From Skermanella mucosa (GTDB lineage: Bacteria; Pseudomonadota; Alphaproteobacteria; Azospirillales; Azospirillaceae), in assembly GCF_016765655.2 (NCBI RefSeq), contig NZ_CP086106.1:4453001-4517000 (forward strand): DNA of 64,000 nucleotides, in the 5' to 3' direction. The position numbers were made by a program, and so were the translations under genes. How positions within the stretch are numbered: the first letter of the stretch is position 1; every line of letters starts with the position of its first letter. This document shows, piece by piece, positions 25,761 to 38,609 of the stretch. The notes beneath the pieces are model-generated. The model saw nothing but the letters and a program-made list of their open reading frames with translations. It made no database searches and was not told the DNA's origin.

Positions 25761-26082
25761 ATGCCAATTGAGTCTTCACTTTGATCAAGGTGGGATCGAC
25801 CGCGCCGGTATCAACTGCGAGGTGCGGATGTCCACCTTTCGCCAGGAGCGGACATAAGGCAGCCGACTCCGGCACTGCGGCGGTCATTGAATGCGATAAC
25901 AACGAGACATGAACAATCTACTTATACCCTGGTCGCATAGATAGCACTAACAGGTGAGGGTTACGGTTGGTGTGGCCTGGGAGATTCATCTGATAGCTCG
26001 ATAATCTTCAGAAAGATAATTATTAACGGTTGTTTATTATTTATGCGGTACATCTTCGGAGATTTCCGGAGCGCGAAAAGCA
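25761..26082. other. A+T-rich gap at the left edge of the accessory island
   Basis: About 320 bases without a convincing gene. Base composition drops clearly from 25900 on (long AT tracts near 26010-26045), marking entry to the island. The tract around 26030-26045 could hold a promoter for the nuclease gene, but no -35/-10 pair is convincing. No tRNA, integrase or attachment repeat was seen. Confidence 0.5.
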
Positions 26083-26719
26083 ATGCATACCTGTCCACCG
26101 CCTAAGGAAGCGATTGAGGGATGGCTCAAACCTTACGATACCGTGCATGGACGGTACGGGCACTTACTGCTCGAACAGCAGGCCGACACAGACGATGATT
26201 TGATTGCCGCAATGCGGCCGTATTTTGAATCCGCTCATTTGGATGCGCGGGAGTATTTTCATGCGCAGATCGGTATCAGTTTGCACCCTGATGCCGACGC
26301 CGCAGGCCATCATGCTTGCTATCCCAATTGCCTACCTCCTAATGCACGCCGCGGCCTGTTTGGCGAGGTAATGGCTGGGATGATTTCAGAGGCGTTTCAA
26401 GACGTCTTTGTTGGCGGACATACATGGCAGGTGCCAATCTTCCTGTTCCGCAAGCATGCCGACGTCGAAGCCTATCTCTATGCTCTCGCGCGAGATGACC
26501 GGCGTCGACGTGAGGTCTTCGGTCGTTTCGGCAGCGACTTTATTGGGATTGCGCTCGGCGATACTGGGGAAATTGTACGTTTTATTGCCGGCGAGGCGAA
26601 GTGGCGGAGGAGGCTGACAGAGGCTGCCGTAGATGAGTTGATGCTGGGTGAGCTGATTGATGACCCATCCACACATAAGCGTGTACGATCGGGAAAGGGG
26701 ATCTGGTTCGAGATTAATC
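26083..26719 (+). pseudogene. hamA: HamA-like PD-(D/E)xK nuclease of a Hachiman-type defence system, 5' part, interrupted
   Basis: The first 212 codons of a 319-residue protein split by an IS66-family element. The nuclease-like core is complete in this half: GLFGEVMAG with Glu95, a Lys in LFRKHAD (124), FGSDFIGIAL with Asp152, and FIAGEAKW giving Glu171-x-Lys173. This order (GE, then GsD, then xEAK) is the DUF1837/HamA pattern as I remember it. In HamA/HamB systems the nuclease is held and activated by the helicase on invading DNA. As it stands, the frame continues 31 codons into the transposon end and stops at 26814. Codon use and GC are unlike the host. The Hachiman assignment is inference from motifs plus the helicase partner; related AbpA is an alternative name. 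Confidence 0.6.
26712..26719. repeat. 8-bp target duplication, left copy, of the IS66-family element
   Basis: GATTAATC, identical to 31990-31997. It is itself a perfect palindrome. An 8-bp duplication is the known behaviour of the IS66 family. Confidence 0.93.
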
Positions 26720-26801
26720 GTAAGCGTCATCTGCTGACCACGTTGCGGAGCGGATCATCACGCGCGACAATGGCGGGGTGGTCTGCTGAGCGGGAGTTGG
26801 A

Positions 26802-28460
26802 TCAGGCGGTCTGAACGCTCTGGCTACCGGATTGCTGAGTCCTCCAGGTCCACGGTAGCAGACAATCGAGTTGGTGAGCTTTGACGTCGCCGGACACGAT
26901 GCGCTCGAGCACATCCTTCAGGTATTCGAACGGATTGAGGCCGTTCATCCTGGCGCTCTGGATCAGCGAGGTAAAGATCGCCCAGGATCGGGCGCCGGAG
27001 TCCGCCCCGGCGAACAGAGCGTTCTTCCTGGTGGTCGCCACGATCCGATGCAGGCGCTCGATGCTGTTGGTGTCCAGCTCGACCCGGCCGTCGTTCAGGA
27101 AGACGCACAGGCCGGCCCAGTGCCTCAGCATGTAGCGGATCGCCTTGGCCACCGGCATCTTTCCGGAGACGCGTGCCAATTGCTCCTCCAGGTAGACCTT
27201 GAGCGCCTCGACCTTCGGCCTGCTTCTGTCCTGACGAACCGTCCGCCGGACATCAGGCGGCTGCCCCCGGATCTCATCCTCGATGCGGTACAACTCAGCT
27301 ATCCGCCGGAGCACCTCGCCGGCGATTGGCGACTGGCTTGACTGGTGAATCTCGAAGAACTGCCGACGACCATGCGACCAGCAGAACGCGAGGGTGACGG
27401 CGCCCGCGTCGTTTGGGACGGCATCCTGTTTGCCGGCCAGCCGTTCGAAGCCGCCCCATCCATCGACCTGCAGCACGCCAGCGTAGTCGGCCAGCACCTC
27501 GCGGGCGCGGTCCCAGACCCGGTCCTCGGTATAGACATAGGCCACCGCAGGCGGATGGTCGCCTTGCCAGGGGGTATCGTCCCGGGCAAGGCCCCAGAGA
27601 TACCCGGTCCGGGTTCTGCCTTTGCCGGGCGCCAGCACTGGCAGCCGCGTGTCGTCACAGAACAGCTTGGGCGAACTCAGCACGCTGGTGAGCAGGAGTT
27701 CCCACAGCGGCTTGAGCCACCACGCCGTCCGGCCCATCCAGTCCGACAAGGTCGCGCGATCGAGACGGATGCCGTCACGCTCCAGGATCTGGACCTGACG
27801 GTATAGCGGCAGCCCGTCGCAATACTTCGACACCGCCAGATGGGCGAGCAGAGCCTCGGTCGGCAGGCCACCGGGAACGGCGCTGTCCGGTGCCGTAGCC
27901 TGCACGACCGCCTCGCCGCAACTCCGGCAGCCGTAGATCGGGCGCCGGATGACCCTGACGCGCAGGCGCAGAGGCACGGCATCCAGGCGCTCGGTTTCCT
28001 CGACGTCGATCTGGTGCATCGCCCCGCCGCAGCACGGGCAACTTCGGCTCTCCGGCTCGATCACCACCTCATAGCGGTCGAGATGGGCCGGCAGGTGACC
28101 GAGGTTGCGCCGTGCCGGGGTTCGCCGGGAACGCCGGCTTGCGTCACTGTCCCCGGCATCCTGCCGGGTGGCCTTGATCGCCGCGATCTCCTGCTCGACG
28201 TTTTCCAGGGTCAGCTGGAACTGGTCGGGATCCAGGCGCTCGGACTTGCGACCGAACTGCGCCCGGACCAGCTGCCTGACCATAAGCTCCAGCCGCTGGC
28301 GCTCGGCATCGGCCTCCTCGAAGGCGCCCTTGAAGTGATCGCGCTCGATCTCCAGAGCATTGAGCGCTTCTCGCTGCCGCTCAACAAGGGCTGCCATCTC
28401 GATCAGCTTGGCCTTCAGCTGATCTGGATTGGACATGTCTTCGAAGCCGATGGTTGACAT
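26802..28460 (-). CDS. tnpC: IS66 family transposase TnpC
   Basis: The DDE transposase of the IS66 element, about 552 residues from the Met at 28460 (an upstream in-frame Met at 28499 is less likely). An N-terminal coiled coil (LVERQREALNALEIERDHFKGAFEEADAE) is followed by a zinc-finger region with CPCCGG and GCRSCGE. The DDE core has KLFCDDTRLPVL (first Asp), QVDGWGGF (second Asp), and ELDTNSIERLHR (Glu). The C-terminal IS66 tail (NGLNPFEYLKDVLERI) is present. The 3' end lies 82 bases inside the left inverted repeat. Confidence 0.95.
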   Translation of the reverse strand: MSTIGFEDMSNPDQLKAKLIEMAALVERQREALNALEIERDHFKGAFEEADAERQRLELMVRQLVRAQFGRKSERLDPDQFQLTLENVEQEIAAIKATRQDAGDSDASRRSRRTPARRNLGHLPAHLDRYEVVIEPESRSCPCCGGAMHQIDVEETERLDAVPLRLRVRVIRRPIYGCRSCGEAVVQATAPDSAVPGGLPTEALLAHLAVSKYCDGLPLYRQVQILERDGIRLDRATLSDWMGRTAWWLKPLWELLLTSVLSSPKLFCDDTRLPVLAPGKGRTRTGYLWGLARDDTPWQGDHPPAVAYVYTEDRVWDRAREVLADYAGVLQVDGWGGFERLAGKQDAVPNDAGAVTLAFCWSHGRRQFFEIHQSSQSPIAGEVLRRIAELYRIEDEIRGQPPDVRRTVRQDRSRPKVEALKVYLEEQLARVSGKMPVAKAIRYMLRHWAGLCVFLNDGRVELDTNSIERLHRIVATTRKNALFAGADSGARSWAIFTSLIQSARMNGLNPFEYLKDVLERIVSGDVKAHQLDCLLPWTWRTQQSGSQSVQTA

Positions 28461-28580
28461 GGCGCAATTATACTTGAACCATTCGATGTAGCGCGACAAT
28501 CTGGATGGAGAGAGCGGCGATCAGGATAAGAATGCCTAAGGTCGCGGCGTCAGGATGATTGACGCTGATCGGGCTGGATT

Positions 28581-30925
<2,345 letters not shown>

Positions 30926-31004
30926 TCATTGGCGTGAAGATCCTCGATCCTGGCCGCATTCACCGCTTCCGTCAGCGACGTCCTTTTCCAGGAAAGGATG
31001 TCGG

Positions 31005-31059
31005 TGTCGCGGTCGTGACTACGGTCAGGCTACGCCCGCCCTCCGTCACGACCGCGACA
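31005..31059. repeat. 14-bp inverted repeat upstream of istA
   Basis: TGTCGCGGTCGTGA (31005-31018) pairs perfectly with TCACGACCGCGACA (31046-31059) around a 27-base loop. It lies inside the IS21 copy about 90-145 bases before istA, where regulators or IstA itself could bind. Confidence 0.8.
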
Positions 31060-31135
31060 TTCCATTCCGACCCTGATTGACGCTCTTCCTATCCTGATTG
31101 TCGGGCCATAATTCGAGATGATCTACGCCTTTGTC

Positions 31136-31489
31136 TCAGCACGCGGCCAACGGGCGGGTAACCGGCGGCACCTGCAAGCGTTCCCAGGGCAAGCCGGACA
31201 ACAGGGCGGACATCTGCAACGCCGACAGCCGGACCACGCCGTCAGTCACGGGCGGCCACTTGAATCGGCCGGCTTCCAGTCTCTTCGTTATCAGAACCAG
31301 ACCGGTGCCGTCATAGAGGATCAGCTTCACCCGGTCCGGACGCCGCGAGCGGAACACGAAGACATCGCCGGCGAAGGGATCAAGACGCAGGGTGACCTGC
31401 ACCAGGGCCGCCAGGCTGTCCATACCGCGGCGGAAATCGACCGGCACCGGCCAGACCAGCACTCGGATACCGGGCGGCAACGTGATCAT
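31136..31489 (-). CDS. tnpB: IS66 accessory protein TnpB
   Basis: A 117-residue IS66 Orf2-like protein with the hallmark PVDFRRGMDSLAALVQ near residue 17, DVFVFRSRRPDRVKLILYDGTGLVLITKRLE, and a C-terminal WPP segment. Needed with TnpA for efficient IS66 transposition in studied members; its biochemical role is unclear. The start overlaps the tnpA stop as ATGA. It was separated from tnpC by the later arrival of IS21. Confidence 0.94.
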   Translation of the reverse strand: MITLPPGIRVLVWPVPVDFRRGMDSLAALVQVTLRLDPFAGDVFVFRSRRPDRVKLILYDGTGLVLITKRLEAGRFKWPPVTDGVVRLSALQMSALLSGLPWERLQVPPVTRPLAAC

Positions 31490-31908
31490 GCCAGGCTCCG
31501 GACCACCTCGAGAACTTGGCGCAGGGCCGCGGCATCGACGGCGCCGGTGAGCCGGACCGAAACGGACCCGATGACGATCTCGATAAGTCCGTTGGCAACG
31601 GACGCTTCGGGCGCCTCTGACACGACCGTGACCGGAACGAAGCCCAGCGCCTCGCCTGCTTGCCCGGCCTTCGCCGGTCGAACTCCGAAGGCGGTTCGCC
31701 AGCCGTAGAGTTGATTGCGGTGAATGCCATGTCGCCGGGCGACTTCCGCCACGATCACGCCGGGTTCCAGGCTCTCCGCGACAATCCTGGCCTTGTCCTC
31801 CTCCGACCAGCGGCGTCGGCGCTCAAGCCCCGTGATCACCTCAATGCGCCGGAGCGGTTCGTCCCTGATGGCGTCTGTATGGGGCAAATTATGCTGCAAA
31901 CGATCCAT
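31486..31908 (-). CDS. tnpA: IS66 accessory protein TnpA
   Basis: A 140-residue IS66 Orf1-like protein with a helix-turn-helix typical of IS3/IS66 OrfA: RRRRWSEEDKARIVAESLEPG followed by VAEVARRHGIHRNQLYGWR. The C terminus carries the IS66 OrfA strand IEIVIGSVSVRL. It is the first gene of the IS66 operon and lies 80 bases from the right inverted repeat. Confidence 0.94.
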   Translation of the reverse strand: MDRLQHNLPHTDAIRDEPLRRIEVITGLERRRRWSEEDKARIVAESLEPGVIVAEVARRHGIHRNQLYGWRTAFGVRPAKAGQAGEALGFVPVTVVSEAPEASVANGLIEIVIGSVSVRLTGAVDAAALRQVLEVVRSLA

Positions 31909-31989
31909 GCCGGAAGTCCCCTGAAAATGGAACTTCCAATCCTGGAACGATTGTCAGATCACGCAAGGTGCCCGCCAGACGACGCTTAC

Positions 31990-31997
31990 GATTAATC
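31990..31997. repeat. 8-bp target duplication, right copy, of the IS66-family element
   Basis: GATTAATC, matching 26712-26719. Deleting 26720-31997 restores the nuclease reading frame (Phe-Glu-Ile-Asn-Arg-Asp). Confidence 0.93.
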
Positions 31998-32320
31998 GAG
32001 ACACACTCGTTCCGCATGGATTGCGTCAACTCCAGCGTCTGCTGGAAGACCGTGATCCCGAAGGGCATGCGGCTGCGATTCTATCGCTCGACCGCGCTCT
32101 GACCGTTGATCATCCACGACCGCTGCCCCGGACCAATCTCATCCTCATTGCTGGCAATGGTGCCAGACGCCGAGAAGATGGGGAAGCGTTGATCGGATGG
32201 CAAAAGATGCCCGAGGAATACAAGGCCAGCCATGATCTGCAGGTCGTTGAACTGATCCTGACCGATGGCGAGGTTCTGATTGACGGCATCTATTCGACTC
32301 TTTGGCAGGAGGAAGCTTAG
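31998..32320 (+). pseudogene. hamA: HamA-like nuclease, 3' part, separated by the IS66 element
   Basis: The last 107 codons of the interrupted nuclease gene. Joined to 26083-26719 they give a continuous 319-residue protein: the split codon CGA is completed by 31998-31999, and the frame then stays open to TAG at 32318. The segment reads as an alpha/beta tail (RTNLILIAGNGARR, DLQVVELILTDGEVLIDGIYSTLW). No separate start signal of quality is visible, so it is probably not translated alone. The stop overlaps the helicase start as TAGTG, and AGGAGG at 32307 serves that start. Its function as a HamB-contact region is inference. Confidence 0.6.
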
Positions 32321-33033
32321 TGCCTGTGCTCGATGCAGAACGGTTAGAGATCGCCGAAGAGTTGTGGCGCGCACTGGCTATCGAAAACACACTGTCACGG
32401 TCTCAGGCCCGAGCCTATGTGCGCTGCTTGCAGGCGACTTGGCAGATGCCGACAATTCAATGGAGTAAAAAAGAATCCGCACGTCAACTCGCCGATGCTC
32501 GGAGGTTGCTCCATGCTGCCCACATCTTCCGCAAGATCGAGGGACCAACCTCGACGCGTGCAGTAAGCTGCTACCGGCGCACTGGAGAGATCCTCGAATG
32601 GCTGTCCAGAGCCAGAGACGACATTCGCGCGGTCGCGCCAATAGAGTTGCTCGCAGGGGCGGCTTATCAGCTTGGCGGGTTACCGGCGATGGCGGCCGGC
32701 CTTCTTGACCAAGTTGACATTGAGTATGACGGCGTCTCCCTATATGCCGCGTTTCTGCGCGCAGACTTCGACGAAGTGTTGCGGCGATCTGTAGAGTTCT
32801 GGACCGCCCATCCCAATCTGACCAAGGCAGACACCTCGTCACGCCTCACTGACGGTTCAGTAGACGAGGAGCGGGAAGGTGATCACCTAATCGCGTGGTA
32901 CTTCACTGTAGAGCTGGTGCGTAGCTTGGGAGTGATCGCTGACAGCCTACGGCGCGGCGATAATGATCGTCTTGCCTCAGCAATGGCCAAGCTACACGCG
33001 CTCGATAGCATGGCGGTGCGAACCTTCAGTGAT
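32320..33033 (+). pseudogene. hamB: HamB-like SF2 helicase, N-terminal 238 codons, interrupted
   Basis: The start of the helicase gene. The GTG at 32320 overlaps the nuclease stop, with a perfect AGGAGG seven bases upstream. These 238 residues precede the motor domains and are helical (LLHAAHIFRKIEGPTSTRAVSCYRRTGEILEWLS; IELLAGAAYQLGGLPAMAAGLL). The frame runs into the inserted element and stops at 33219, so the present product would be a truncated N-terminal domain with 62 foreign residues. In Hachiman and AbpB helicases a large N-terminal region also precedes the motor. Lower GC and mixed codon use indicate foreign origin. Confidence 0.62.
33016..33033. repeat. 18-bp direct repeat, left copy, flanking the rve-transposase element
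   Basis: GTGCGAACCTTCAGTGAT, repeated exactly at 34570-34587. The two copies encode the same Val-Arg-Thr-Phe-Ser-Asp in the same frame of the helicase gene, so the repeat is a target duplication. 18 bp is unusually long for the IS3 or IS481 families. Confidence 0.9.
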
Positions 33034-33068
33034 CTGCCGTCGATGAAGTTGGACACCGGATTGTCCAT

Positions 33069-33452
33069 ATGGAAGAAGCGATGGAAGATCCGAAGAACAC
33101 ACCCAAGCTGCCGACGGACTCTGGTGAGAAAGCCGGGCCGAAGGTCATTCAGCGCTGGAGCGCCGCCCGCAAACGCGAGGTGGTCCTCCGTCTGCTGCGC
33201 GGTGAATCGCTCGACCTGATTTCCCGGGAGATCGGCATCGAGACTTATCGGCTGGAGCGTTGGCGCGACAAGGCGCTGACGGCGATGGATGCCGGCCTGA
33301 AGGAGCGCGCCGACGACGATCCCGTCCAGGCTGGTCTCGACGCCGCCCACAAGCGGGTCGGCGAGCTGAGCATGGAAGTCGAGTTGCTGCGCGCCAAGAT
33401 CGGGCGCCTGGAGGCTGGAACCCCTTTTCCCCGGGCGAGGTCGCGAAGATGA
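33069..33452 (+). CDS. transposase OrfA, helix-turn-helix protein
   Basis: A 127-residue protein with a helix-turn-helix near residues 30-65 (RWSAARKREVVLRLLRGESLDLISREIGIETYRLERWRD) followed by a leucine-rich coiled coil (ELSMEVELLRAKIGRLE), the standard OrfA layout for end recognition and multimerisation. Its stop overlaps the orfB ATG as ATGA. The orfB frame is also open upstream across the end of orfA, in the -1 register, and the run CCCCTTTTCCCC at 33421-33432 could promote slippage to an OrfAB fusion. Confidence 0.88.
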   Translation: MEEAMEDPKNTPKLPTDSGEKAGPKVIQRWSAARKREVVLRLLRGESLDLISREIGIETYRLERWRDKALTAMDAGLKERADDDPVQAGLDAAHKRVGELSMEVELLRAKIGRLEAGTPFPRARSRR

Positions 33453-34342
33453 GCGCGGCGATCTCGCCTTCAACCCAGCGGCCCTACGGCGTGCAGCGGG
33501 TCTGCCGCATCTGGGCCCTGCCGCGCTCGACCTTCTACCAGGCGCGTCGCCCGGCCAACGCCGCTCCTGCCAGGCCACGCGGCCCCAGGCCGCCGGTCGA
33601 TGACGCCAGCCTGCTCGCCGCCATCCGGGCCGACCTCGCCGCCTCGCCGTTCTCCGGCGAGGGCCACCGCAAGGTCTGGGCGCGCCTGCACTACGGCCTG
33701 GGCCTGCCGGTCGGTCGCAACCGCGTGCTGCGCCTGATGCGCGACAATCAGCTGCTCTCGCCGTTCCGGCGGCCGCCGCGCCCGGCCAACGACCATGACG
33801 GCACCATCCTGACCGAGGCCCCGGACGTCCTGTGGGGCACCGACGCTACCCTGGTGCAGACATCCCAAGAGGGCCGGGTCTGGGTATTCGCCGCCATCGA
33901 CCACTTCAACTCCGAGGTCGTCGGGCATCATGTCTCGACCGATGGCTCGCGCTTCGCGGCACTCGAGCCAATCAGCCAGGCGGTGACATCCCGGTTCGGC
34001 GGGATCGCGGCCGATGCCGCCCGCGGCGTGGCGCTGCGCTTGGACAACGGGCCGCAGTACACGTCCCACCACTTCTCCCAGCAGATCGGCCACTGGGGCA
34101 TGGCGCTGAGCTACGCCTTTGCGCACCAGCCGCAAGGCAACGGCGTCATCGAGCGGTTCTTCCGGACCCTCAAGGAACAGGCGATCTGGGGCCGGAGCTT
34201 CCGCACCGCCGCCGAAGTCAGGGCGGCGGTCAGCGATTTCGTGGCCCGCTACAACGCCGCTTGGCGACTGGAGCGGCTGGGCTACCTCAGCCCGCGCGAC
34301 TACCGGAACCGCCACCGCCAGCCGGAAAGCCTTGCCGCATGA
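33449..34342 (+). CDS. transposase OrfB with integrase (rve) core
   Basis: A 297-residue DDE transposase. The N-terminal part has the HTH_21-like stretch SPFSGEGHRKVWARLHYGLGL. The catalytic core has WGTDATLVQTSQEG (first Asp), LRLDNGPQYTSHHF (second Asp) and GNGVIERFFRTLKEQ (Glu), ending with SDFVARYNAAWRLERLGYLSPRDYRN. All three catalytic residues are present, so the element may be active. It is translationally coupled to orfA. The remaining 227 bases to the element end hold no gene. Confidence 0.92.
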   Translation: MSAAISPSTQRPYGVQRVCRIWALPRSTFYQARRPANAAPARPRGPRPPVDDASLLAAIRADLAASPFSGEGHRKVWARLHYGLGLPVGRNRVLRLMRDNQLLSPFRRPPRPANDHDGTILTEAPDVLWGTDATLVQTSQEGRVWVFAAIDHFNSEVVGHHVSTDGSRFAALEPISQAVTSRFGGIAADAARGVALRLDNGPQYTSHHFSQQIGHWGMALSYAFAHQPQGNGVIERFFRTLKEQAIWGRSFRTAAEVRAAVSDFVARYNAAWRLERLGYLSPRDYRNRHRQPESLAA

Positions 34343-34569
34343 TCCATCCCGATGTTCGATCGAGGGCTGACCATCCCGCCGTCCCGACCTGCCACCCGGC
34401 AGGCCGCCGCGCGCAGGCCCGGTCAAGCAGGGCCATCGGCCCCCGCCACAGCGGCTTGTGCTTGACCGGGCCGAGCACGGTGGCATCCTTCCTTCAGGTC
34501 GGAAGCCCACAACCCCGACCAACCACCCCGTAACCCTTCGCCGGTGTCCAATCTATTGGTGGCGGTACA

Positions 34570-34587
34570 GTGCGAACCTTCAGTGAT
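34570..34587. repeat. 18-bp direct repeat, right copy, flanking the rve-transposase element
   Basis: Identical to 33016-33033. It also supplies a GTG that could restart translation of the helicase, with GGTGGCGG at the element end a few bases upstream. Confidence 0.9.
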
Positions 34588-37518
34588 GACGCATCGCTGA
34601 TCGTCACCCTACTCCGGCAAGTTGCCGATAGCTACAATGAGGCGAGCATTTACCGCCCGCTTCTGGCGCTCTCGGAATTGAATCCAGACAGACGCGGCAA
34701 GCTTATTGCCTATGCCCGGGACCAGTTTAGCCGAGGGCGCGGCATTCTCTGGACCTCGCAGCTCCATGGTCTCAACCGTCTCCTGCGTGACTCCTCGTTC
34801 GCGCTCTGCACGCCAACGGGTTCCGGTAAAACGCTTATTGCCAATATGGCGTTGATCAAGGAGCTTCTTTTGCATGTCCATGATGGACCTGCTCCGCTCG
34901 CCATGTATCTTGTTCCATCGCGGGCACTTGCTGGCGAGGTGGAAGCGAAACTCCACAATGAGCTGGGCAGCGAGATCGCTGTTACTGGCCTCTATGGAGG
35001 TGCTGATTGGGGCATTACCGACTATTGGCTGAGCGGTGAAGAACCGACTGTCCTGATCGTTACAGTCGAAAAGGCAGATGCTCTAACACGTTACCTTGGA
35101 CCATTGCTCACCGAGCGATTACGCCTTCTGATCATTGACGAGGCGCACCAAGTTGTTCCTGAGGACGGTGAGAATACGCGCATTAGCTTCTCGGATCACA
35201 ACAATCGATCTATTCGAATGGAGAGTTTTGTCTCTCGGATACTTGTACAACGACCGGACATTGTGCGAATCGCACTGACAGCGGTCGCGGGCGGTGCATC
35301 GCGGCCTGTCGCCCGGTGGATCGAGGGGCGGGCGGAAGCCAAGGCGGTCGGTGTCCACTATCGCAGCACACGGCAGGTAATCGGCATTCTAGAGACGGCA
35401 CCGAATCTGCCAAGCCGTATCCTGCTTGACATGATGAATGGAAGGCCCCTTTACATCCGCGGTCAAGAGGAGCCAGTCTTCCTTGATTTGCGGGTTCAAT
35501 CGATGCCGCGATTGCCGTCAGCGATGCGCAACAGCCTCAACCGCTTCAACAGCTTGGCCGTGCTGTGGACTGCGCTGCACTTGGCAGAGGAGAACCAGCG
35601 CATTCTGATCTCAGTCGCGCAGGAGCCGGAGCAAACGATGCGCTGGTTCAAGGAGGCGCTGGAATTGCCGAGTTGGGCCGGCGCACCGGCCTTTGCTCTT
35701 CCCGAAGGAGAACTTCGCGAACGTTTCGATGAAGCTCGCGCGGCTTGCGTGGATTATTGCGGTGAGGATTGCTTCGAGTTGGCGTTGCTTGATCGCGGGA
35801 TCGCCACAAGTCATGGACAGATGCCGCAGCGACTCCGGCGTCTGATGACGGAGATGATCGACCGTCGCATCTGTCCCATCGCCGTGGCGACAGCAACCCT
35901 AACAGAGGGGGTCAATCTTCCGTTCGACCTGATTTTCCTGACCTCGCTGAAGCGCCGCGCTTGGAACGCCGAGTTAGAACAACCGGTAATCTCCCCGCTC
36001 TCCACCGCGGAGTTCCGCAACCTCGCTGGTCGGGCTGGTCGTCCGGGTGCAGCGCGCGGAATCGAGGGGATGACACTGGTAGCAATTCCTGCCAGAATTT
36101 CGACCACCGCTAATAGTTTTTCTGCCACCCAACGTAACCAGCTTGAAGAGCTGTCCAATGACTATTACGGCCTTCGTGAAAAGTTGCTGATAGAGGAGGT
36201 GGATGCTGACAAGGTAGAAAGTCCGCTTGCCCTGTTAATTGCTGCCATTCGCGAGAAGGCAATCCAACTCCTCGGCGTTCCCCCTGATCAATTTCTAACT
36301 TGGCTTGAACAGGTGACGCCCATTGATATCAGCGACGAAGCAGGCAAAGGCGCCACGAGTCCGCACGCCCGTTTCGCTGACAGCCTCGATGAGTTGGACG
36401 GCATCCTGCTGACCGCGTGTGAAGAGATAGCGCGGATGGACGAATTGGAAATGACTGGTCCCGCCGCTGAAGAGCAGTTGGCTGCGCTTTGGCAGACGAC
36501 ATTCACCGCCGTCGCTGCGGTACAGGAAGATTGGATGGAGCGGGCATTCGTCAGGCGTGGTCGCGCCATAGTGGAGACGGTTTATCCTGACGCCGAGGAA
36601 AGACGCCGACTTTATGAGTATGGCTTCTCGCCATTTGTTGGCCGCCGCTTCGAGATAGTTGCACTTCGGGTGCGTGCGCTTGTTGCCGCCGCGCAGACTT
36701 ATGGTACAGACGATCCTGAGACACGACTGGACGTCTTCGAACAGATTGGCGATCTGCTCTCGGCAGACCGAGGTTTCGGATTTCGGGTACGGTCGACAAT
36801 ATCGGATCAAAGATTGCTTGGTCGTTGGAAAGAAGTGCTAGCGTGGTGGATGCAGGAGCCTGATGCCTCCGCCCCTGACGCTGACGAACTGCGAGGGTGG
36901 CAACGCTTTGTCGCAGATAATCTTGAATTCCGGCTGGGTGTTGCGATCGGAGCTGTGGTTGCCCAAGCTTGGTCGGCAGGGGCAGCGGATACCCGTGCCG
37001 TGCCATCGCTTGCGGAATGGAAGAAGACGACGGGACTTCCATGGTTTGGTTTTTGGGCTCGCGAGCTGCTGCGCTGGGGGACGCACGATCCCTTCGTCGC
37101 GTTCGCACTCTCCCGAGGGCTGGCCAAAACCCGAGAGGCGGCTGCGGAACGACGCGGTGAGTTTGAGGCTTGGCTGGATGAAGAATATGATGATCTCGAA
37201 GCTGAGAACCTTATCGATCCACAACTTTTCATCCAGTGGCAAAGCAGTTTTCTTCAGCCCGAGCGTGCGGCTACCGCATCACCTTCTGAGTCCGTCGACT
37301 TGACCGGCACTGATGGTCGTCGGAAGAGATACAATGTAATCCCAGCGACCGATGGCGTACTCGTTCGCTGGTTAGATCCGGCTGGGTTCGAATTGGCACG
37401 ATCAGAAGATATTCCGGAGGAGTTTAGAGACAAATCGATCCGGAATGACTATGAATTGAGGAAAAATCGCCACAGATCATCGGTCTATCGGACATTTAGT
37501 GCGCCGATTAGGCGTTGA
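34570..37518 (+). pseudogene. hamB: HamB-like SF2 helicase, motor and C-terminal part
   Basis: The main part of a DEAD/DEAH-type superfamily 2 helicase; from 34588 it supplies residues 239-1214 of the restored protein. Motif I is LCTPTGSGKT (Lys319 of the restored protein), motif Ia YLVPSRALAGE, motif II LLIIDEAH (422-425), motif III IALTAV, motif IV/V ATATLTEGVNLPFD, and motif VI NLAGRAGRPG (719-725), the Ski2-like form. The C-terminal 480 residues are helical and unassigned. In Hachiman systems such a helicase scans DNA and controls the nuclease subunit. This part is open from a GTG inside the direct repeat, so a protein lacking the N-terminal 238 residues could still be made. GC is clearly below that of host genes. 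Confidence 0.68.
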
Positions 37519-37997
37519 GCTCTGTCGAGACGTTAGGCGGCTCAATCACCAGAGGGACCTTTAGACGATAGCGGATTTAAAGCAACACAATTCAAGCTGT
37601 TCAGCCCTTGCCAGTCAAAGGGATAGTATTATTAGATGATTTAAGCTAAACGCCACTGCTGCTCAGGAAGCAGGAACGCTCACAGGAATAGCCAGACCAG
37701 CCATACTTGCCCAAGAGCCTGCCCGAAGAAAATAGAGGCGTGGCACATTACGCACAGCTTAGGCGGGCAGCAATTCCCTGGCTTGCGCAGCTTCGATTTT
37801 CCTCAATTGATTTACCAACAGTATCCGGAGGTTTGCCGGACACACCGTTAGCCCGTGCCGAATGTCCGCTTCGGGTCAAGAACAGACGTAAGTGAATTCT
37901 GATTCCTGGCGGCAAAACCCTGTCGAGAAGAGCTTCTGCAATTTGCAAGATAACGGCATCCGGCTTCGGCAAGCACGCTTGATGATCGAGCGGACCT
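37519..37997. other. A+T-rich gap at the right edge of the accessory island
   Basis: About 480 bases. A 62-codon open frame at 37707-37895 has no ribosome site or recognisable domain and is not accepted. The stretch near 37855-37890 (AATGTCCGCTTCGGGTC) resembles degenerate intergenic sequence often seen in alphaproteobacteria; a similar TGTCC/GGAC stretch lies near 25830-25860 at the left edge. No integrase, tRNA or attachment site was seen. Confidence 0.45.
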
Positions 37998-38609
37998 CTA
38001 CCGATCGGCAAACGCCAGCTTAGCCCCCAAAGCCGCGAAGGCGCCAGCGAAGGTCCGCCGCATCCAGACCAGTACCCGCGGCCGAGAGATCACGTGGCTC
38101 CGGATCGAAGCGGCAAACACCCCATAGCCGACGAAGACGGCGAAGGTCAGCAGCATGAAGGCGGCGCTGAGTTCCAGCATGCGCGGGAGCGGATTCGGTT
38201 CGTTGGCGCTGACGAACTGCGGCAGGAACGCCAGGAAGAAGATCGACAGTTTCGGGTTGAGGATATTGACCAGGACGGCGGAGACGATCACCTGAACCGC
38301 CGACCGGGGCGTGACGTCCTTGTCGACACTGAGCGCGCCCTGTTGCCTCAGCGTGTTCCAGGCCATGTAGAGCAGGTAGGCCACGCCCAGGTACTTGAGG
38401 ACCTGGAACGCCAGCGCGCTGGCATGGAGCAGCGCCGCCAAGCCCAGGATCGCGGCGGCCATGTGCGGGATGATGCCCAGGGTGCAGCCGAAGGCCGCGA
38501 TCAGGCTCGCCCGAAATCCGCGCGAAAGACCCGCCGCCAGGGTGAACAGGACTCCGGTACCGGGTGACGCGACGACGATCAGCGACGTTACCAGGAAGTC
38601 GATGTCCAT
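37998..38609 (-). CDS. LysE/RhtB family translocator
   Basis: A 203-residue inner-membrane exporter from the Met at 38609 (MDIDFLVTSL); an ATG 12 bases upstream is also in frame. Family features: VASPGTGVLFTLAAGLSRGFRASLIAAFGCTLGI at the N terminus, YLGVAYLLYMAWNTLR, and NILNPKLSIFFLAFLPQFV with the conserved NPK. About six hydrophobic segments are visible. Exported substrate unknown (amino acids or related small molecules). GC returns to host level here, so it marks the resumption of backbone after the island. Confidence 0.88.
   Translation of the reverse strand: MDIDFLVTSLIVVASPGTGVLFTLAAGLSRGFRASLIAAFGCTLGIIPHMAAAILGLAALLHASALAFQVLKYLGVAYLLYMAWNTLRQQGALSVDKDVTPRSAVQVIVSAVLVNILNPKLSIFFLAFLPQFVSANEPNPLPRMLELSAAFMLLTFAVFVGYGVFAASIRSHVISRPRVLVWMRRTFAGAFAALGAKLAFADR

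What the first reader, a model, noticed from the sequence alone, without database searches (positions are those of the whole stretch)
26083..37518. Hachiman-like anti-phage operon broken twice by transposons, exactly reconstructable
The sequence shows a two-gene operon split into four pieces. Removing 26720-31997 gives a 319-residue PD-(D/E)xK-type protein; removing 33034-34587 gives a 1214-residue SF2 helicase. The genes overlap as TAGTG, and AGGAGG is perfectly placed for the second. The nuclease keeps GE, GSD and GEAK motifs, and the helicase keeps TGSGKT, DEAH and GRAGRPG. Established knowledge: a DUF1837/HamA-like nuclease followed by a helicase is the layout of Hachiman (HamAB/AbpAB). 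Inference: this is a divergent member, hit by insertions in each gene, perhaps because it was costly or because it was silenced.
Basis: partly seen in the sequence, partly recalled or inferred. Interest (0 to 1): 0.88.

Follow-up and report, generated by a model that had tools for sequence, protein, structure and literature searches.

The report
Hachiman defence genes broken by transposons
A bacterium carries a divergent copy of a known two-gene anti-virus system (Hachiman) that seems to have been switched off recently when jumping genes landed in both of its genes; intact copies live on in many other bacteria.

Summary
Observation confirmed and refined. A nuclease gene (26083-26719, 31990-32320) and a helicase gene (32320-33033, 34570-37518) are each cut once. 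The hamA insert is an IS66-type element (26720-31989, 8-bp duplication) carrying a nested IS21-type element (28487-31110). The hamB insert is a 1,540-bp IS3-like element (33030-34569, 14-bp duplication).

I spliced nothing. Relatives show the pieces collinear in uninterrupted frames (32 of 45 genome loci scored both genes intact); an Ancylobacter plasmid has the same layout (319 and 1,216 aa).

Hachiman is supported. The helicase profile's best solved structure is HamB (E 9e-29; fold E 1.4e-35). The predicted nuclease fold matches HamA (E 4e-8) and nothing outside Hachiman below E 0.5; the D-GEXK residues are invariant. By sequence the nuclease is nearly invisible: no relevant Pfam hit, a weak partial PADLOC hit, named 'aminotransferase' or hypothetical in listed plasmid annotations.

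The operon sits in a slot that is empty in one congener and holds a toxin-antitoxin-like pair in another. It keeps 62 of 62 and 258 of 260 invariant residues, so the break looks recent. Verdict: a divergent, recently inactivated member of a known system.

The parts
25761..37999 (.). Stretch absent from same-genus genome G080 (45 bp there) and replaced by 860 bp with a PIN/Phd-YefM-type pair in G079; breakpoints 25760 and 38000 in both
26083..26719 (+). hamA-like nuclease gene, first piece (codons 1-212; holds the G-S-D ... G-E-A-K active-site motif)
   Evidence: PADLOC HamA E 0.0011
26720..31989 (.). IS66-type element inside hamA (tnpC 26802-28499 -, tnpB 31136-31489 -, tnpA 31486-31908 -); ends GTAAGCG...CGCTTAC
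   Evidence: Pfam DDE_Tnp_IS66 7.5e-91, TnpB_IS66 3e-33; ends
26712..26719 (.). 8-bp target duplication GATTAATC, left copy
31990..31997 (.). 8-bp target duplication GATTAATC, right copy
28487..31110 (.). IS21-type element nested inside the IS66-type element (istB 28581-29414 -, istA 29411-30913 -); 6-bp duplication ATTCGA; four identical copies in the genome, this one included
31990..32320 (+). hamA-like gene, second piece, ends at TAG 32318-32320
32307..32312 (+). AGGAGG, probable ribosome-binding site of hamB
   Evidence: sequence
32320..33033 (+). hamB-like helicase gene, first piece (N-terminal helical domain), GTG start overlapping the hamA stop; its last 4 bases coincide with the first 4 of the IS3-like element
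   Evidence: only HamB models match it in PADLOC (E 7.1e-5; that query began 6 codons upstream, at 32302)
33030..34569 (+). 1,540-bp IS3-like element (orfA 33069-33452, orfB with rve domain ending at 34342) inside hamB; three identical copies, this one included, and one 91% full-length copy in the genome
33016..33029 (.). 14-bp target duplication GTGCGAACCTTCAG, left copy
34570..34583 (.). 14-bp target duplication, right copy
34570..37518 (+). hamB-like helicase gene, second piece (TGSGKT, DEAH, GRAGRPG; winged-helix, C-terminal helical and OB-like regions by homology)

Best explanation
This is a horizontally acquired, divergent Hachiman (hamA-hamB) operon that was recently inactivated by transposition. 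Shown: an IS66-type element with an IS21-type element inside it cuts hamA after codon 212, and an IS3-like element cuts hamB before the helicase core. Shown on relatives, by sequence and predicted fold: intact copies encode a HamA-fold nuclease with the D-GEXK site and a full-length HamB-type Ski2-like helicase. Inferred from the characterised system (Tuck et al. 2024): the intact complex patrols DNA, HamB senses damaged or free-ended DNA, and it then activates HamA's DNase, which destroys phage and host DNA. In this genome the system should be non-functional (inference). The hamA fragment keeps its catalytic residues but lacks the last third, and the helicase core of hamB is cut from the N-terminal domain that binds HamA. 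Why it was lost (autoimmune cost, lack of phage pressure, or chance in a genome with active insertion sequences) is not established.
For: Collinearity of the pieces with uninterrupted relatives. PADLOC HamB in 18 of 18 relatives at E 0.001 or better, best 8.3e-54, and in both window pieces. Profile against solved structures: HamB 8vx9_B E 9e-29, top of 31. Fold search: HamB 8vx9_B E 1.4e-35, TM 0.74/0.76, best non-Hachiman 1.7e-15 with TM 0.43/0.63; HamA 8vxy_A E 4.4e-8, best non-Hachiman E 0.58. Active-site alignment with HamA E138/K140. Target duplications at all three elements. Identical element copies, this one included: 3 of the IS3-like, 4 of the IS21-type. Window pieces keep 62 of 62 HamA and 258 of 260 HamB residues invariant in relatives. 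Empty slot in G080. Lower GC: 0.549 at 36001-38000, against 0.635-0.717 in the 2-kb steps outside 26001-38000.
Against: HamA assignment by sequence is weak: PADLOC matches about 35 residues. Pfam gives three unrelated single-row hits in 22 rows (E 0.0082 or worse). The solved-HamA match is E 0.064. The HamA fold match has rmsd 7.5 and TM 0.53/0.66, so it is remote. 13 of 45 relatives scored one or both genes not intact. Antiphage activity cannot be tested here, and I found no phage experiment on this lineage in the papers I saw.
Confidence: 0.93

Rival explanations
1. A non-Hachiman nuclease-helicase defence pair whose helicase resembles HamB only because both are Ski2-like SF2 helicases.
For: HamA is barely recognisable by sequence; Hel308, Brr2 and pol theta helicases also match the helicase by profile or fold.
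Against: The match to HamB runs far beyond the helicase core (71-1036 of 1,211 positions). The motif-free N-terminal piece matches only HamB models in PADLOC. The nuclease fold search gives only Hachiman entries below E 0.5.
Confidence: 0.05
2. The insertions reflect selection against a costly, autoimmune system rather than chance.
For: Independent insertions elsewhere in the lineage: an IS66-type transposase in hamB of L017, an IS6/IS240-type transposase right behind truncated hamB in L044, ISRm2011-2 inside hamB on a Sinorhizobium meliloti plasmid. Ectopic Hachiman expression is reported as mildly toxic. Two separate hits in one operon.
Against: 32 of 45 relatives scored both genes intact and only 2 of 45 show a transposase at the break (not every broken locus was examined for one); no control rate for genes of similar length was measured. 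A second hit after inactivation needs no selection. The genome carries several other copies of these elements.
Confidence: 0.3
3. The broken operon is a functional reservoir or switch: the fragments or IS excision give regulated defence.
For: Reading frames are undecayed; the second hamB piece has an in-frame GTG at 34570.
Against: Both genes are cut, the hamA insert is itself a nested composite, and precise excision of such elements is rare (recalled). Full conservation is explained equally by recency.
Confidence: 0.03

Closest known systems
Hachiman HamAB (E. coli ECOR31; PDB 8vx9, 8vxa, 8vxc, 8vxy; PMC12278908)
   Same: Gene order, D-GEXK nuclease site, Ski2-like helicase with DExH box, N-terminal helical bundle, C-terminal barrel, full-length fold match
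   Different: HamA about 317-319 aa here against 259, 15-16% identity in the fold alignment; HamB 20% identity; HamA not recognised by Pfam and only partly by PADLOC; here both genes are interrupted
AbpAB (E. coli), described as a Hachiman variant (PMC12278908 discussion)
   Same: Nuclease plus Ski2-like helicase
   Different: AbpA has an added Cap4-like nuclease domain and a dead HamA site; this HamA is short and keeps the site
Protease-HamA / HamMAB variants (PMC12799240, passages)
   Same: HamA-HamB core
   Different: Those have a protease fused to HamA and nearly always lack D-GEXK; this HamA has no room for a protease domain (306-322 aa in relatives) and keeps D-GEXK
PADLOC candidate PDC-M23B
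   Same: Its model matches the larger helicase piece at E 2.2e-24
   Different: Scores far below the best HamB model (6.9e-37)

Membership tests
Hachiman | Two adjacent genes, HamA-type nuclease followed by HamB helicase | tested here: met
   32 of 45 loci scored both frames intact and adjacent; a 33rd, L046, looks mis-scored. In the window the order is kept but both genes are interrupted
Hachiman | HamA recognised by family profile (DUF1837) | tested here: inconclusive
   PADLOC HamA model PDLC00159 matched 21 of 22 rows at E up to 1 (best 6.2e-6), over about 35 of 257 positions in the rows tabulated; no relevant Pfam hit
Hachiman | HamA fold | tested here: met
   AlphaFold2 model of the intact HamA of L037 (pLDDT 87.5); Foldseek top three are Hachiman, E 4.4e-8, 2.4e-7, 5.4e-3; remote (TM 0.53/0.66, rmsd 7.5)
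Hachiman | D-GEXK active site (motif from PMC12799240 and PMC12278908) | tested here: met
   D152, G170, E171, K173 invariant in 38 of 38 relatives and present in the window piece; align with HamA E138/K140
Hachiman | HamB Ski2-like SF2 helicase with DExH | tested here: met
   TPTGSGKT and DEAH invariant in 33 of 33; top solved match HamB E 9e-29
Hachiman | N-terminal helical bundle that binds HamA, absent from other Ski2 helicases | tested here: met
   N-terminal piece matches only HamB models in PADLOC; predicted helical region in the L010 model, residues 2-253; full-length fold match. Binding itself was not tested
Hachiman | HamA-HamB complex formation | not testable with these tools
   No complex prediction was available or run
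Hachiman | Protection against phage | not testable with these tools
   Needs a phage assay
Hachiman | Company of other defence genes | tested here: inconclusive
   Among 123 neighbour frames of 33 loci (found by a crude longest-frame rule): type I restriction enzyme (3), type IIG enzyme, RmrA, LmuB, AbiEi, DrmMII, PifA models at E 1e-20 or better (first 25 of 106 families shown); 4 phage integrases (first 25 of 85 families shown). No background rate measured; in the window the neighbours are a Clp protease and a LysE transporter
AbpAB | Extra nuclease domain fused before an inactive HamA | tested here: not met
   Relatives' HamA frames are 306-322 aa with the HamA site kept
IS3 family (the element in hamB) | orfA plus orfB with rve domain, ends TG...CA | tested here: met
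   HTH_Tnp_1 0.0033 (below its cut-off), rve 4.4e-12, HTH_21 2.4e-8; ends TGAT...TACA; some of the plasmid relatives listed are annotated IS3 family
IS3 family (the element in hamB) | Short target duplication (3-5 bp, recalled) | tested here: not met
   14 bp in 8 of 9 copies with both ends; none seen in L052

The most novel reading that the evidence does not exclude
The operon represents a widespread Hachiman lineage hidden from current sequence models because its HamA has drifted beyond recognition (records call it 'aminotransferase'), and this lineage is repeatedly switched off by insertion sequences because the active system harms its own host when DNA is under stress.
Probability: 0.25. 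Interest if true: 0.55.

Novelty: new member of a known kind. Interest (0 to 1): 0.4.

Why it matters
It extends Hachiman to a broad lineage (Alpha-, Beta- and Gammaproteobacteria, a Heliobacterium, a Puia MAG; 14 of 24 matching plasmid records are predicted conjugative) whose nuclease is missed or misnamed by annotation, so Hachiman may be under-counted. Finding the pair freshly broken, and broken independently by other elements in a few relatives, makes the cost of this defence testable: compare disruption rates, and test intact copies for toxicity under DNA damage.

Tried and rejected
Rejected: a single transposon in hamA (it is IS21-type inside IS66-type). Rejected: an 18-bp duplication at hamB (14 bp once the element ends are set from other copies). 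Rejected: AbpAB membership (no extra domain, HamA site kept). Rejected: a generic Ski2 helicase.

Led nowhere: Pfam and NCBIfam on the nuclease pieces gave nothing relevant (one weak RovC_DNA-bd match, E 0.0082, below its cut-off). Paper searches for an IS3-family element with 14-bp duplications found none: one search listed no paper with two of its terms; one search listed two, of which I read passages of PMC11708052 (1-14 bp as the general range, 3 bp in an IS150 example); one search listed two, no use. A search for Hachiman with pseudogenes or insertion sequences found 72 papers; I saw 15 in the listing and read none. Searches for Hachiman, HamA and HamB listed 25 of 2,642 papers and 9 of 9; no listed title names this lineage.

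Results against my reading: weak HamA sequence matches; 13 of 45 loci scored not fully intact. Of these, L006 is cut by a contig end, L046 looks mis-scored (its P0002 match begins before the hamA stop codon), and several are deletions or frameshifts that may be assembly or sequencing faults. Four of the 45 (L020, L029, L045, L049) have no hamA match at all.

Papers seen: PMC12278908 outline, sections 8, 9 and 17, and passages; PMC12799240 passages; PMC11708052 passages; all others search listing only.
Full report
WHAT IS THERE. The window belongs to a 7.84-Mb genome. Four coding pieces lie on the + strand: 26083-26719, 31990-32320, 32320-33033 and 34570-37518. The two genes overlap as TAGTG at 32318-32322, with AGGAGG at 32307-32312. 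None of the pieces has an internal stop.

THE INSERTS. Between the hamA pieces lies an IS66-type element, 26720-31989, with tnpC, tnpB and tnpA on the - strand and a GATTAATC duplication. Inside it sits an IS21-type element, 28487-31110, duplication ATTCGA; four identical copies exist in the genome, this one included, with 6-7-bp duplications. A partial second copy of the IS66-type element elsewhere in the genome (96-98% identical) has the uninterrupted IS21 target (L076). Between the hamB pieces lies an IS3-like element, 33030-34569. It has three identical copies, this one included, and one 91% copy in the genome. Its duplication is 14 bp in 3 of 4 full-length copies here (none seen in L052), and in 8 of 9 when five copies from G078 and G011 are added. 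I read the 14 bp off the printed flanks, with the element bounded by TGAT and TACA; the script's own repeat lengths (14-17) include chance matches at the edges.

PROOF FROM RELATIVES. A scan of one genome per species with the larger helicase piece gave 45 relatives. In relatives such as L005 the pieces fall in single open frames. They overlap by 2 codons at the hamA break and 5 at the hamB break, which are the duplicated target sites. Of 45 loci, 39 scored an intact hamA and 34 an intact hamB; both were intact in 32; four had no hamA match. An annotated plasmid of Ancylobacter polymorphus has the same layout, 319 and 1,216 aa, overlapping by one base (lengths).

IDENTITY OF THE HELICASE. PADLOC's best models are HamB for both pieces. 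HamB models match 18 of 18 relatives at E 0.001 or better, and are best for the one tabulated in full. The relatives' profile finds E. coli HamB (8vx9_B) first among solved structures, E 9e-29, collinear from 71 to 1036 of 1,211 positions. An AlphaFold2 model of L010 (from codon 10; pLDDT 85.0) shows an N-terminal helical region, the helicase core, further helical regions and a C-terminal beta-rich domain. This fits the domain order described for HamB (section 8 of PMC12278908). Its Foldseek match to HamB is E 1.4e-35, TM 0.74/0.76; the best non-Hachiman hit is pol theta helicase, E 1.7e-15, TM 0.43/0.63.

IDENTITY OF THE NUCLEASE. By sequence the link is thin. PADLOC HamA gives E 0.0011 over 36 residues, and 21 of 22 rows match one HamA model at E up to 1, best 6.2e-6. 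Pfam gives no relevant family: three unrelated single-row hits, E 0.0082 or worse. Solved HamA gives E 0.064. By fold the link is clear though remote. A model of the intact HamA of L037 (pLDDT 87.5) finds 8vxy_A (E 4.4e-8, TM 0.53/0.66, rmsd 7.5), 8vx9_A (2.4e-7) and 8zue_A (5.4e-3), all Hachiman; the next hit is E 0.58. In the alignment the conserved E and K fall on HamA E138 and K140, whose joint mutation ablates defence. D152, G170, E171 and K173 are invariant in 38 of 38 relatives.

WHEN AND WHERE. The window pieces keep 62 of 62 residues invariant in 38 HamA relatives and 258 of 260 in 33 HamB relatives, within the spread seen when each relative is left out in turn (0-4 and 0-12 departures). 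With identical element copies elsewhere, this points to a recent break (inference). The slot lies between a Clp protease gene and a LysE-type gene. Same-genus genome G080 has 45 bp there; G079 has 860 bp with a PIN-domain and a Phd/YefM-type gene; both share the breakpoints 25760 and 38000. In G081 and G078 the region matches differently. None of the 4 other same-genus genomes has the helicase at E 1e-30; in the family 3 of 82 genomes match, including this one, the other two at 34% and 36% identity. Horizontal gain is the simplest reading.

DISTRIBUTION AND CONTEXT. Relatives occur in Alpha-, Beta- and Gammaproteobacteria, a Heliobacterium and a Puia MAG (record titles). Among plasmids, 24 of 72,556 records match the nuclease, 14 of them predicted conjugative. 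Of the 20 rows listed, those with an annotation call it 'aminotransferase' or hypothetical protein. Among 123 neighbour frames of 33 loci, picked by a crude longest-frame rule, several restriction and other defence models and four integrases appear; no background rate was measured.

OTHER BROKEN COPIES. An IS66-type transposase lies in hamB of L017, an IS6/IS240-type transposase follows a truncated hamB in L044, and ISRm2011-2 splits hamB on a Sinorhizobium meliloti plasmid. This shows recurrence, not selection; a control rate is missing.

HOW IT WORKS. By homology with the characterised complex (PMC12278908, sections 8, 9 and 17 read), HamB should hold and gate HamA while scanning DNA and activate its DNase on meeting free-ended DNA. 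All of that is inferred for this lineage. In this genome both genes are cut, so the system is most likely dead.

VERDICT. Observation confirmed and refined; interpretation supported. A known kind of system, in a divergent lineage that sequence models see poorly.

Noticed in passing
33030-34569, with 33016-33029 and 34570-34583: An IS3-like element makes 14-bp target duplications in 8 of 9 copies with both ends seen; 3-5 bp (recalled) is usual for IS3. It may be a distinct group; the distantly related IS481 family is recalled to have a wider range.
   Followed up: partly
28487-31110; G000:C1:5993442-5996066 (L071): The IS21-type element has four identical copies; the one here sits in an IS66-type element, and a second has IS66-type matches on both sides (L079, L083).
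   Followed up: partly
25760 / 38000; L105, L106: An intergenic slot behind a Clp protease gene is empty in G080, holds a PIN/Phd-YefM-type pair in G079 and this operon here: a possible small hotspot for accessory defence-type genes.
   Followed up: partly
L119:6337-7296 and plasmid hits H31-H49: Public records name this HamA-like nuclease 'aminotransferase' or hypothetical protein; the name aminotransferase looks wrong.
   Followed up: partly
L003, L004: Two other genomes of the family (G060, G006) hold more distant HamB-like helicases (36% and 34% identity); a weak HamA-like match lies upstream of the one in L004.
   Followed up: no
L118:5227-9974: hamB of this lineage on a Sinorhizobium meliloti plasmid is split by ISRm2011-2.
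   Followed up: partly
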